Source: Fusobacteriota bacterium (GTDB lineage Bacteria > Bacillota > TC1). Taken from it: a stretch of DNA of 56,060 bases. Made by a program: the position numbers and the translations under genes. The DNA is taken from positions 1-56,060 of the forward strand of contig JAKEGG010000019.1 of the NCBI GenBank assembly GCA_022615965.1, given 5' to 3'. The notes beneath the pieces are model-generated. The model searched no databases. It was not told the DNA's origin and saw nothing but the letters and a program-made list of their open reading frames with translations. This document shows, piece by piece, positions 20,397 to 26,851 of this stretch (positions are counted from its first letter, which is position 1; each line of letters starts with the position of its first letter).

Positions 20397-20621
20397 ATGA
20401 AGAAAAATAATGATAGTACCAAACAGACCATATCAATACCTAGAGCGATAGCTTACGCAACATCAACATCTTTTACCATTATAACCCTTATACTAATAGG
20501 TTATTTTGTAGGTAAAAAATGGGGCACTACGGGAATGGGTATTGGTATTTTAATTGGTGGACTGCTTGGTATTTTTTTAATGTTAAATGAATTATATGTG
20601 ATTTTTAAAAAGAAAAAGTAA
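20397..20621 (+). CDS. AtpI/AtpZ-like ATP synthase accessory protein
   Basis: This is a 74-residue protein with a polar N-terminus and two membrane helices (about residues 18-40 and 46-68). The turn between them holds FVGKKWGTTGMGIGILIGGLLG, and a lysine-rich tail follows. This is the pattern of the AtpZ/AtpI family, which precedes atpB in many operons and is thought to aid c-ring assembly or ion uptake. It is the first gene of the operon, immediately downstream of the promoter, with atpB 13 bases on. The exact family, AtpI or AtpZ, cannot be settled by eye. Confidence 0.85.
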   Translation: MKKNNDSTKQTISIPRAIAYATSTSFTIITLILIGYFVGKKWGTTGMGIGILIGGLLGIFLMLNELYVIFKKKK

Positions 20622-20634
20622 AAGAAGGATCTAA

Positions 20635-21342
20635 ATGGGATTTATCGTTGATTATTTAAATGGAATTATAGAAGAGCTACCATATTTGCTTGAGACTACT
20701 AAGCCAATTATTTTTTTTGAAAAAGGTGATTTTAGAATATCCTCGTTTGTAACAACAACTTGGATAGCTATGTTTTTAATAATTGCTTTTGTACTTATAA
20801 TAACTAGTAAACTAGAAATAAAGCCTACTACCAGAAGACAAGCTATAGCAGAAAAGATTGTATTTTCTTTCTATAGTTTCTTTAAAGAAATACTTGGTGA
20901 TAACGCTAGAAAAGTATACGGTATGCTTGGTAGTTTTTTTCTAATCATCCTGGTGTTCAACTTTATGTGGGTAATACCAACTTTTACAGTACCGACTTCG
21001 AGTTATAGTACTACATTGGCCTTAGCCCTATTAGCCTATTTGTATTCACAAATGATAATAATCAAAAAGGTCAACCTGAAAAACTATATTATTAGTTATG
21101 GACAGCCAAACCCGCTGATGATCATAGGTAATGTTCTATCAATTATAGCAAGACCTTTGTCATTATCTATGCGTTTATTTGGCAATATGTTTGCGGGTAA
21201 AATATTAGATTCATTGATAATGATGACATTGCCATTACTGGTGCCTATAGCATTCAGTTTGCTAAGTATATTAGCTGGGGGAATTCAAGCTTATGTTTTC
21301 ACATTGTTAGTAACAATGTTTATAAATGAAGGATTAGAATAA
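20635..21342 (+). CDS. atpB: ATP synthase F0 subunit a
   Basis: Subunit a forms the half-channels that carry ions to and from the c-ring. The 235-residue protein has five to six transmembrane helices. The essential arginine is R180 in SLSMRLFGNMFAG, and the earlier SFFKEILGDNARK and FNFMWVIPTFTVPT are family blocks. The last helix contains GGIQAYVFTLL. It lies between the AtpI/Z-like gene and the c subunit, the normal order. Confidence 0.96.
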   Translation: MGFIVDYLNGIIEELPYLLETTKPIIFFEKGDFRISSFVTTTWIAMFLIIAFVLIITSKLEIKPTTRRQAIAEKIVFSFYSFFKEILGDNARKVYGMLGSFFLIILVFNFMWVIPTFTVPTSSYSTTLALALLAYLYSQMIIIKKVNLKNYIISYGQPNPLMIIGNVLSIIARPLSLSMRLFGNMFAGKILDSLIMMTLPLLVPIAFSLLSILAGGIQAYVFTLLVTMFINEGLE

Positions 21343-21354
21343 GGAGGAAAAGAA

Positions 21355-21561
21355 ATGGAATTTATCGGATTAGGACTTTCAATTGGAATCGGGACTTTAG
21401 GAGAGGCTTTGGTTGTAAAACAAGCTATAGACTCTTTGGCAAGACAGCCGGAAATGGCTAGTACCTTCAGAACATTTATGATCGTAGGGGCAGCTATTGT
21501 AGAAACTGGTATTATTTATTCATTTATATTAGGTCTACTGATTTGGGTTAAGTTGGGGTAA
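21355..21561 (+). CDS. atpE: ATP synthase F0 subunit c with two-carboxylate, Na+-type ion site
   Basis: Subunit c forms the ion-driven rotor ring. The protein has 68 residues and two helices joined by the conserved loop ARQPE (29-33). The ion-binding carboxylate is E50 in the motif IVETGIIYS, where Thr51 and Tyr55 match the Ser/Thr and Tyr of Na+-binding c subunits. A second carboxylate, E17 in GTLGEALVV, aligns with Gln32 of Ilyobacter and Glu32 of Fusobacterium nucleatum; the E17-E50 spacing of 33 equals that of E32-E65. The sequence therefore suggests a sodium-coupled rotor of the two-carboxylate type. It starts at ATG after AAGGAGG. Confidence 0.95.
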   Translation: MEFIGLGLSIGIGTLGEALVVKQAIDSLARQPEMASTFRTFMIVGAAIVETGIIYSFILGLLIWVKLG

Positions 21562-21570
21562 AAAACTAAT

Positions 21571-22080
21571 ATGGAAGAAATGCTCGACCTATTAAACTTT
21601 AATCTCTCGGATTTTATTTTTCAGGTTATAAATATCAGTATTTTGCTTTTCTTTTTAAATAAGTTTCTATTTAAAAAGGTAATGGCAGTTATCGATGACA
21701 GAAACAAAGAGGTCAATAATGTCTATAATGATATTGATGAAGCCTGGGGTGAAATAAAAACTAAAGAAAACAAGTATTCAGCCTTACTTACTAATGTTAA
21801 GGCCGAAACTGATGATATAATTGCAAAAGCCAAACAAGAAAGTAAATTGATTAAAGAAAAATCCCTTATGGAAGCCAGGGAAAGTGCTGACAAAGAAATA
21901 AAACGGGCCAGATTATCTATTGAAAGTGAAAAAAGAGTTGCTTTAGAGGAAATCAAAAGCAATATTTCTGAACTAGTTGTCAAAAGCACAGAAGCGGTTT
22001 TAAAAGACAATTATAAAGACAGTACAAAACAACCAGTAGCTGAGCAATTTATCAATGGTTTAGGAGAAAAGAATGAGTAG
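21571..22080 (+). CDS. atpF: ATP synthase F0 subunit b
   Basis: Subunit b is the peripheral stalk that stops the catalytic head from turning. The 169-residue protein has one N-terminal membrane helix (about residues 12-33, ending FFLNKFLFKKVMAVIDDRNKEV, quoted here only as a landmark) and a long Lys/Glu-rich helix. That helix has the AKQESKLIKEKSLMEARESA pattern typical of the right-handed coiled coil. It overlaps atpH by eight bases, so b and delta are translationally coupled. Confidence 0.94.
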   Translation: MEEMLDLLNFNLSDFIFQVINISILLFFLNKFLFKKVMAVIDDRNKEVNNVYNDIDEAWGEIKTKENKYSALLTNVKAETDDIIAKAKQESKLIKEKSLMEARESADKEIKRARLSIESEKRVALEEIKSNISELVVKSTEAVLKDNYKDSTKQPVAEQFINGLGEKNE

Positions 22081-22618
22081 TCTGGCTGTAATTGAAAGAT
22101 ATAGTCGTTCTTTGTTTCAGGTTGCAGAAGCTAATGATACAGTTGAAGATATCAAAAATGAATTACAAGCATTAGCTAAGGTTTTTACTGAGGATGATAA
22201 ATTGAAAACATTTTTCACTTCTCCTGGAATCAAGTCAGAGATTAAGGCGAATCTGTTAAAAGAGACCCTTGATAAAGGTGGATTTTCTCGATATACGATC
22301 AATTATTTCAATCTGTTAATGGAAAATAACAGGTTTGATTTTAATGTACCATATTTGTCAGCTGTGACTTTCAATAATTTTTATTTAAAAAGCCAAGGAA
22401 TAAAAAAAGGGAAAATAATTCTTGCAAAAGAATTAAATGAAATCGAAATAGCTAAATTAACTCAGGAAATATCTGAAAAATTGGGATTTAAGTTAGAACT
22501 AAAATATCAGTATGAACCTGAACTAATTGATGGCATCTATCTGGAAATTGAAGGTGTAGTGTACGAAGATAACCTGAACAAGAGATTAGTTAAATTGGAA
22601 AAATGGTTGAAGGGATAG
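22073..22618 (+). CDS. atpH: ATP synthase F1 subunit delta
   Basis: Subunit delta connects the peripheral stalk to the top of F1. The 181-residue length is normal. The N-terminal helical domain starts [18 protein letters not shown], and the C-terminal part holds the family block [20 protein letters not shown], a form of the usual DPSLIGGIVIRIGD.VID.S motif. It lies between atpF and atpA, overlapping the former and five bases from the latter. Confidence 0.93.
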
Positions 22619-22622
22619 AACA

Positions 22623-24137
22623 ATGTATTTGAAACCAGAAGAAATTAGTAATATTTTAAAAGAAAAAATAAAAAGCTTTAACTTTAATATGGAAAAAGAA
22701 GAAGTAGGTACAGTTATCCAGGTAGGTGATGGTATTGCTTTAGTTTATGGTTTGGAAAATGTTATGGCTGGAGAAATAGTACTTTTTGAGAATGATATTA
22801 AAGGAAGTGTTTTAAATCTGGAAGAACACCACGTAGGTGTAGTTATTTTAGGTGAATATAAAGATATTAAGGAAGGCAGCCTGGTAAAGAGAACCGGTCA
22901 GGTTTTAAGTGTACCATGTAGTGAAAAATTATTAGGCAGGGTAATCAATCCTTTAGGTGAAGTAATCGATGGGAAAGAAGCTATTGTTAGCAATATCTAT
23001 TACCCTATTGAAAAGGAAGCACCTAAAATTATTGACAGAGACTTTGTTAGAACTCCATTAGAAACTGGTATAAAAGCAATTGATGCTTTAGTTCCTATTG
23101 GCAGAGGACAAAGGGAATTAATAGTTGGTGATAGACAAACAGGAAAAACTTCAATAGCAATTGATACAATCATCCATCAAAAAGGTAAAGATGTAATTTG
23201 TATTTATGTAGCTATAGGTCAAAAGGCTTCTAGTATTGCCCAAATAACAAGGGAATTGGAAACTGAAGGAGCTATGGACTATACGATAGTGGTTGCGGCT
23301 ACTGCCAGTGATCCGGCATCAATGCTCTACATAGCACCATATTCTGGTTGTGCCATTGGGGAGTATTTTATGGATCAAGGTAAAGATGTTTTAATAGTTT
23401 ATGACGATTTATCAAAGCATGCAGTAGCTTATAGAGAGATATCATTGCTATTAAGAAGACCACCTGGAAGAGAGGCTTATCCTGGTGATGTATTTTATCT
23501 TCACTCAAGACTGTTAGAAAGAGCTTCGAAAGTAGCTCCATCTCTTGGTGGAGGTTCAATTACTGCTCTGCCAATAGTAGAGACACAAGCTGGAGATATT
23601 TCTTCATATATTCCTACAAATGTTATTTCTATTACAGATGGTCAGATATTTTTAGAAACAGACCTATTTAATGAAGGTATAAGACCAGCAATCAATCCAG
23701 GTGTTTCAGTTTCAAGGGTTGGAGGTAATGCTCAGTTTCCTGCTTTAAAACAGGTAGCTGCATCATTAAGAATAGATTTGGCTCAATATAGGGAACTGGA
23801 AGCATTTTCTCAGTTTAGTTCTGATTTGGATATTGAAACTAGAAAGAAACTGATACGTGGTGAAAAGCTAGTAAATATTTTGATTCAGCCAAACTATAAG
23901 CCAGTAGGGGTTGAACAACAGGTCATTTCTATATATTCTGCAAATCTGGGAATTTATGATGAGCAGGAAACAGAAGAAATTCAAAATCTGGAAAAAGAAG
24001 TATTTGATGTTGTAAGCAGTAAAAATGCAGAGATTTTAAATAAAATCAGAAATAAGGAAAAGCTTTCTCCAGAAGATTTCAATAGTTTGAAAGATACAAT
24101 CAACGGATACATGGAAAGCAAAGCTCAAGAGGAGTAA
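22623..24137 (+). CDS. atpA: ATP synthase F1 subunit alpha
   Basis: Alpha forms the non-catalytic nucleotide sites of the F1 hexamer. It has 504 residues, the standard length. The N-terminal beta-barrel contains [11 protein letters not shown], the Walker A motif is GDRQTGKTS (169-177), and the family signature [14 protein letters not shown] with the arginine finger lies near residue 360. It starts with ATG at 22623, four bases after atpH, and ends one base before atpG. Confidence 0.98.
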
Positions 24138-24138
24138 A

Positions 24139-26428
<2,290 letters not shown>

Positions 26429-26431
26429 AAC

Positions 26432-26851
26432 ATGAAAAGTGATTTACTATTAGAGGTTTTATCCCATCATGGTCAAATTGTCAAAGAAGATGAGGTGGAA
26501 TTAGTTGATGTTCCTACTATGTTAGGGCATACAACTATTCTTTCAAATCATACAGCATATTATGGAGCAGTTCAGATAGGTGTATTAAGGTATAAGAAAA
26601 ATGGTGTAAATAAAAAAGTTGCCATAGGGACACATGGAATAGTTGAGGTGTTTAAAAACCACGTTACAATAATAGTACATACTGCTGAAAGAGCAGAAAA
26701 TATTGATGTGGCAAGAGCAAAAATAGATAAGGAAGAAGCCCTTGAGCTTATCAGTAATGGCATTGCTAAAACACCCGGTGGGTTTGATGTACAATTAGCC
26801 TTAAAACTAGCTAATTATAGAATTGCTCTTGGAGAAGAAATTGAAAGTTGA
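26432..26851 (+). CDS. atpC: ATP synthase F1 subunit epsilon
   Basis: Epsilon binds the base of gamma and can inhibit ATP hydrolysis. The protein has 139 residues. The N-terminal beta-sandwich contains TMLGHTTILSNHTAYYGA in place of the common G.LGVLPGHAPL pattern, and the C-terminal helical part includes DVARAKIDKEEALELI. It is somewhat diverged but in the correct place as the last F1 gene. Its final codons overlap the next gene, a PHP phosphoesterase. Confidence 0.93.
   Translation: MKSDLLLEVLSHHGQIVKEDEVELVDVPTMLGHTTILSNHTAYYGAVQIGVLRYKKNGVNKKVAIGTHGIVEVFKNHVTIIVHTAERAENIDVARAKIDKEEALELISNGIAKTPGGFDVQLALKLANYRIALGEEIES

What the first reader, a model, noticed from the sequence alone, without database searches (positions are those of the whole stretch)
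21355..21561. ATP synthase c subunit with two carboxylates, suggesting a Na+-driven rotor
E17 and E50 are spaced 33 residues apart, as are E32 and E65 in the Fusobacterium nucleatum c subunit, described as a two-carboxylate Na+ rotor. The ET motif at 50-51 and Tyr55 fit Na+ binding. The second-shell residue T67 of Ilyobacter is Gly here, so the site is a variant. Sodium coupling would shape energy conservation and implies a Na+ pump such as Rnf elsewhere.
Basis: partly seen in the sequence, partly recalled or inferred. Interest (0 to 1): 0.62.

Follow-up and report, generated by a model that had tools for sequence, protein, structure and literature searches.

The report
Two-carboxylate ATP synthase rotor, ion unresolved
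This is an ordinary bacterial ATP synthase gene cluster whose spinning ring has a second acidic residue at each ion site; that feature alone does not show that sodium rather than protons drives it, and the residues around the site and in the neighbouring stator fit neither standard type cleanly.

Summary
It lies in a complete atp operon. The inference "two carboxylates, hence Na+" does not hold. The F. nucleatum paper itself says the extra Glu is permanently protonated, is roughly equivalent to Gln, and also occurs in H+-driven synthases. The B. pseudomallei N-type ring (Glu, Glu-Thr, non-polar 67, Tyr) is H+-selective. In this family (6 genomes) E17, E50, T51 and G52 are invariant, but Tyr55 is Phe in 4 of 6. 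All 17 other two-carboxylate [ST]66 c subunits sampled keep T67 and Y70. The operon falls outside the clostridial Na+-ligand clade, and its closest a subunits belong to H+-type enzymes. Against a plain H+ reading, the genus's a subunit lacks every acid at E. coli positions 218, 219 and 245 (K189 and S211 here), which all 49 H+-type relatives have; a nearby Asp192 may substitute. Rnf is the only primary pump found, but it can move either ion. Coupling ion: H+ or mixed H+/Na+ about 0.55, Na+ about 0.40. A variant of a known kind.

The parts
21355..21561 (+). atpE, c subunit, 68 aa, site string E17/I48/E50/T51/G52/Y55 (Ilyobacter 32/63/65/66/67/70)
21403..21405 (+). codon of E17, second carboxylate on helix 1 (position 32)
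   Evidence: sequence; aligned to 3zk1
21502..21510 (+). codons of E50 (ion-carrying Glu), T51 (Ser66 position) and G52 (Thr67 position)
   Evidence: sequence; invariant in 6 family genomes
21517..21519 (+). codon of Y55 (Tyr70 position); Phe in 4 of 6 family members
20635..21342 (+). atpB, a subunit; stator Arg180 (E. coli 210), Asn184, Gln218 kept; Ile170 (conserved acid ten residues before the Arg), Gly188/Lys189 (218/219), Asp192 (222), Ser211 (245)
20397..20621 (+). small two-helix membrane protein in the atpI/atpZ position; no family match
   Evidence: position; (0 families)
21571..22080 (+). atpF, b subunit
   Evidence: TIGR01144 above cut-off
22073..22618 (+). atpH, delta subunit
   Evidence: TIGR01145 above cut-off
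22623..24137 (+). atpA, alpha subunit
   Evidence: TIGR00962 above cut-off
24139..25026 (+). atpG, gamma subunit
   Evidence: TIGR01146 above cut-off
25019..26428 (+). atpD, beta subunit
   Evidence: TIGR01039 above cut-off
26432..26851 (+). atpC, epsilon subunit
   Evidence: PRK13446 E = 1.9e-24 (below curated cut-off)

Best explanation
This is the c subunit of an ordinary F1Fo ATP synthase with a two-carboxylate rotor. E50 is the ion-carrying carboxylate that meets Arg180 of subunit a at each step. E17 on the inner helix is most likely always protonated and acts as a hydrogen-bond donor, in place of the Gln of related rings. T51 supplies the hydroxyl ligand. The Thr that holds the structural water in Na+ rings is Gly52. 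The site is therefore intermediate in polarity, and the coupling ion is most likely H+, or H+ and Na+ both depending on pH and salt, as reported for Methanosarcina acetivorans. Strict Na+ coupling is not shown. Rnf is probably the primary pump that feeds it. Shown: residues, operon, conservation, Rnf genes. Inferred: protonation of E17, the role of Gly52, the ion.
For: Residues and operon. PMC3692424: the second Glu is constitutively protonated, worth about a Gln for selectivity, and present in H+-driven S. pneumoniae and M. tuberculosis enzymes; the M. acetivorans enzyme couples both ions. PMC5376962: a ring with E30/E61/T62/M63/Y66 is H+-selective by NCD-4 labelling. PMC2359735: predicted Na+ enzymes all have a polar residue at 67. 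The 17 two-carboxylate [ST]66 c subunits outside the family keep T67 and Y70, whereas the family has G67 (6 of 6) and F70 (4 of 6). AtpB+AtpA+AtpD and AtpA+AtpD trees place the family outside the clostridial Na+-ligand clade. The closest a subunits in 299 genomes of the phylum (24 loci) all pair with QxEALF-type c subunits (one QFETLF).
Against: The a subunit of the genus has no acid at 218, 219 or 245, whereas 49 of 49 H+-like relatives do and Na+-set relatives never have one at 218/219 (0 of 35). Locus L049 combines Q32/T66/G67/Y70 with a Na+-like stator (Gly218, Leu219, Asp245), so Gly67 may be compatible with Na+. Rnf is the only primary pump found. 'H+ or mixed' covers two mechanisms.
Confidence: 0.55

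Rival explanations
1. Na+-driven rotor: E50, protonated E17, T51 and the I48 carbonyl bind Na+, and water in the space left by Gly52 completes the shell. Rnf makes the Na+ gradient.
For: E32, T66 and (here) Y70 equivalents present. The a subunit lacks acids at 218/219, as in 35 of 35 Na+-set enzymes and unlike 44 of 49 H+-like ones. L049 shows Gly67 next to a Na+-like stator. Rnf present, no other primary pump found in the family.
Against: Gly67 breaks the Na+ ligand rule of PMC2359735. Y70 is not conserved in the family. The Na+-set stator features Asp245 and the acid ten residues before the Arg (35 of 35) are missing. Not in the Na+-ligand clade. H+-selective precedent with the same local pattern.
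Confidence: 0.4
2. Degenerating or specialised Fo: the rearranged half-channel (K189, D192, S211; no acid at 170) reflects a weakly coupled or hydrolysis-only enzyme.
For: Several conserved channel acids are absent in all six family members. Two genus-mates carry a second, N-type ATPase.
Against: Arg180, Asn184 and Gln218 of the channel, both rotor carboxylates and all F1 genes of the window are intact; the channel residues are conserved in every family genome examined. The window's genome shows no second c subunit or V-type enzyme (genome 80% complete).
Confidence: 0.05

Closest known systems
Fusobacterium nucleatum c11 ring (PDB 3zk1/3zk2), two-carboxylate Na+ rotor
   Same: Two Glu 33 residues apart, hydroxyl residue after the ion-carrying Glu, Tyr five residues after it
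   Different: Gly instead of Thr67; Tyr not conserved in the family; shorter subunit (68 vs 89 aa); not in the same clade as ligand-set enzymes
Ilyobacter tartaricus c11 ring (PDB 1yce), Na+ rotor
   Same: Ion-carrying Glu, hydroxyl at 66 and Tyr70 equivalents
   Different: Glu instead of Gln32, Gly instead of Thr67
Burkholderia pseudomallei N-type c17 ring (PMC5376962)
   Same: Two Glu, Glu-Thr, non-polar residue at 67, Tyr; measured as H+-selective
   Different: Met rather than Gly at 67; N-type operon, whereas this is an F-type operon
QFEALF-type F-ATP synthases of the same phylum (e.g. L154, L155, L158)
   Same: Closest a subunits by profile score; Phe at 70 as in most of the family; same F-type operon
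   Different: Gln32, Ala66, Leu67 in c; Glu218 and Glu/Lys219 in a
L049 (Clostridiales MAG), c site Q/I/E/T/G/Y
   Same: Thr66-Gly67-Tyr70 pattern
   Different: Gln32 and a Na+-like stator with Asp245; nested in the Na+-ligand clade

Membership tests
F-type ATP synthase | Complete a, c, b, delta, alpha, gamma, beta, epsilon operon with stator Arg and rotor carboxylate | tested here: met
Two-carboxylate c ring (F. nucleatum type) | Glu at positions 32 and 65 | tested here: met
   invariant in 6 of 6 family members
Na+-driven c ring (complete ligand set) | Ser/Thr at 66 | tested here: met
   T51
Na+-driven c ring (complete ligand set) | Polar residue (Ser/Thr/Gln/Arg) at 67 | tested here: not met
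   G52 in all 6 family members; rule from PMC2359735
Na+-driven c ring (complete ligand set) | Tyr at 70 stabilising the ion-carrying Glu | tested here: inconclusive
   Y55 in the window and G002; Phe in G001, G003, G004, G005
Na+-driven F-ATP synthase (clostridial ligand-set clade) | Groups with ligand-set enzymes in trees of AtpA/AtpD (and AtpB) | tested here: not met
   (FastTree; deep order uncertain)
Na+-driven F-ATP synthase (stator pattern seen here) | No acid at a218/219, Asp at a245, acid ten residues before the stator Arg | tested here: inconclusive
   first met, other two not met
H+-driven F-ATP synthase (stator pattern seen here) | Acid at a218, a219 or a245 | tested here: not met
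   absent in the 5 genus members (K189, S211); Glu at 245 in G001; possible substitute Asp192
Na+-driven F-ATP synthase | Na+ protection from DCCD/NCD-4, Na+-dependent ATP synthesis | not testable with these tools
   needs protein
Na+-driven F-ATP synthase | c11 stoichiometry | not testable with these tools
   needs the ring

The most novel reading that the evidence does not exclude
A lineage of F-type ATP synthases that moved from an H+-type rotor site (Gln32, Ala66, Leu67, Phe70) towards Na+ or mixed coupling by a different route (Glu32, Thr66, Gly67, sometimes Tyr70), while rebuilding the stator inlet channel (loss of the acids at 218/219/245 and ten residues before the Arg; new Lys219 and Asp222). 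It would be a coupling-ion switch without the standard Thr67 ligand.
Probability: 0.3. Interest if true: 0.5.

Novelty: new variant of a known kind. Interest (0 to 1): 0.3.

Why it matters
The family mixes features of both classes in rotor and stator, so one labelling experiment on it would test how far Thr67 and the stator acids set the coupling ion.

Tried and rejected
Two phylum-wide pattern searches were void: my pattern had two surplus N, did not match the window, and its hits are chance. The corrected pattern was validated on known loci first and gave 11 true hits and 1 chance hit, G274. Rnf as evidence for Na+: rejected, because Rnf occurs in 10 of 10 genomes of the order, including those with H+-type c subunits, and can be Na+-independent. 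Residues of the Rnf Na+ path (PMC11889175) were read but not used; I found no basis there to tell Na+ from H+ Rnf. An ML tree with IQ-TREE failed on the thread setting and then timed out; FastTree was used. In one search the column for E. coli Glu196 is shifted by gaps, so I counted the conserved acid by its distance from the stator Arg. In one search the position-245 regex misread L041 and L131, both Asp. Structure prediction was not run: a single hairpin without its ring says nothing about ion choice.

Full report
Observation. The ORF at 21355-21561 (+) encodes a 68-residue protein with E17, E50, T51, G52 and Y55. It matches PF00137, and its alignment to the solved F. nucleatum c ring places E17 on the second glutamate. 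Neighbours are atpB, F, H, A, G, D and C in order, with a small unclassified membrane protein in the atpI/atpZ position.

What the motif means. In the F. nucleatum ring, Na+ is bound by Glu32, the carbonyl of Val63, Glu65, Ser66 and a water held by Thr67, and Glu32 carries a permanent proton. The same paper says that this extra Glu contributes to selectivity about as Gln or Asn would, and that the double-carboxylate motif also occurs in H+-driven synthases such as those of S. pneumoniae and M. tuberculosis; the M. acetivorans enzyme is reported to couple both ions. The B. pseudomallei N-type ring has E30, E61, T62, M63 and Y66 and was found to be predominantly H+-selective, against the sequence-based prediction. 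So E17, the E-T pair and Y55 together do not identify the ion. A 2008 survey states that all predicted Na+ enzymes carry Ser, Thr, Gln or Arg at position 67, and predicted H+ enzymes Leu, Ile or Val. Gly fits neither.

Conservation. Ten genomes of the order are held, six of them in the window's family. In all six, E17, E50, T51 and G52 equivalents are kept, but position 55 is Tyr only in the window and G002 and Phe in four others. Among two-carboxylate c subunits with Ser/Thr at 66 outside the family, all 12 in named genome contigs and all 5 true hits in 299 genomes of the phylum have Thr67 and Tyr70. Gly67 with Thr66 was seen once elsewhere, in L049, with Gln32.

Phylogeny. Trees of AtpA+AtpD and of AtpB+AtpA+AtpD put the family on its own fully supported branch, outside the clade of clostridial enzymes with the complete Na+ ligand set. 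The deep order is uncertain: FastTree, rooted on the long N-type branch. In a profile search with the family's a subunits, the 24 loci outside it that were read all came with c sites of the type Gln32, Ala66, Leu67, Phe70 (one has Thr66). Descent from an H+-type site with Gln-to-Glu, Ala-to-Thr and Leu-to-Gly changes is the simplest reading (inference). Two-carboxylate sites also sit on several separate branches of these trees, so the motif seems to have arisen more than once.

Stator. In E. coli, aE219 and aH245 line the inlet half-channel (PMC11121307). After removal of duplicates, 49 enzymes with H+-like c sites all have an acid at 218, 219 or 245 (44 at 218/219). None of 35 with the full Na+ set has an acid at 218/219, and 27 have Asp at 245 by regex (29 after correcting two misreads). 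The window's genus has Gly188, Lys189 and Ser211 at these places, with a new Asp192 one helix turn on. The other genus of the family (G001) has Gly219 and Glu245. A conserved acid ten residues before the stator Arg (35 of 35 Na+ set, 36 of 49 H+-like) is missing in all six. These counts are not phylogenetically independent. So the stator lacks the H+-type acids but also two Na+-set features. L049 shows that Gly67 can sit with a Na+-like stator.

Genome context. Rnf genes are present, and RnfD is found in 10 of 10 genomes of the order. In the six family genomes no Na+-decarboxylase beta subunit, membrane pyrophosphatase, V-type A subunit above cut-off, or Ech/complex I large subunit was found. 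Two genus members have N-type ATPase genes; the c subunit, seen in G003, carries the full Na+ set. The window's genome is 80% complete, so its absences are weak. Rnf activity is Na+-dependent in C. tetanomorphum and B. fragilis but Na+-independent in C. ljungdahlii and V. cholerae, so it does not settle the ion.

Verdict. The Na+ conclusion is possible but not established. I put H+ or mixed coupling at 0.55 and Na+ coupling at 0.40. This is a variant of a known kind, worth one labelling experiment.

Noticed in passing
L097 (G003:C1:56000-70000) and L096 (G004:C18): Two genus-mates carry N-type ATPase genes besides the F-type one; G003's N-type c subunit has the full Na+ ligand set (Glu, Glu-Ser-Thr, Tyr).
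   Followed up: partly
loci: Across about 90 enzymes the c-site class predicts the a subunit: acid at 218/219/245 in 49 of 49 H+-like, no acid at 218/219 in 35 of 35 Na+-set enzymes, most of which have Asp245. Could serve as a second marker of coupling ion.
   Followed up: partly
window 21355-21403 versus L143 (G001): The inner helix of c is four residues (about one turn) shorter before the second Glu in the window than in the sister genus (16 versus 20 residues).
   Followed up: no
L005, ORF starting near 2707: A Halanaerobium contig holds a second c-like gene whose ion-carrying Glu is Gly (SGSTGIY), next to a normal atpE.
   Followed up: no
L025, ORF starting near 2879: Thermotalea contig holds a fused multi-hairpin c gene, one hairpin without the carboxylate (AQSTGIY), beside a normal atpE, like the c1 subunit of Acetobacterium woodii.
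   Followed up: no
L049, 3463 onwards: A clostridial c subunit with Gln32, Thr66, Gly67, Tyr70 and a Na+-like a subunit, nested in the Na+-ligand clade.
   Followed up: yes
L094 (G006:C78): One member of the order has a membrane pyrophosphatase; the four genomes of the other family have V-type ATPases, absent from the window's family.
   Followed up: no
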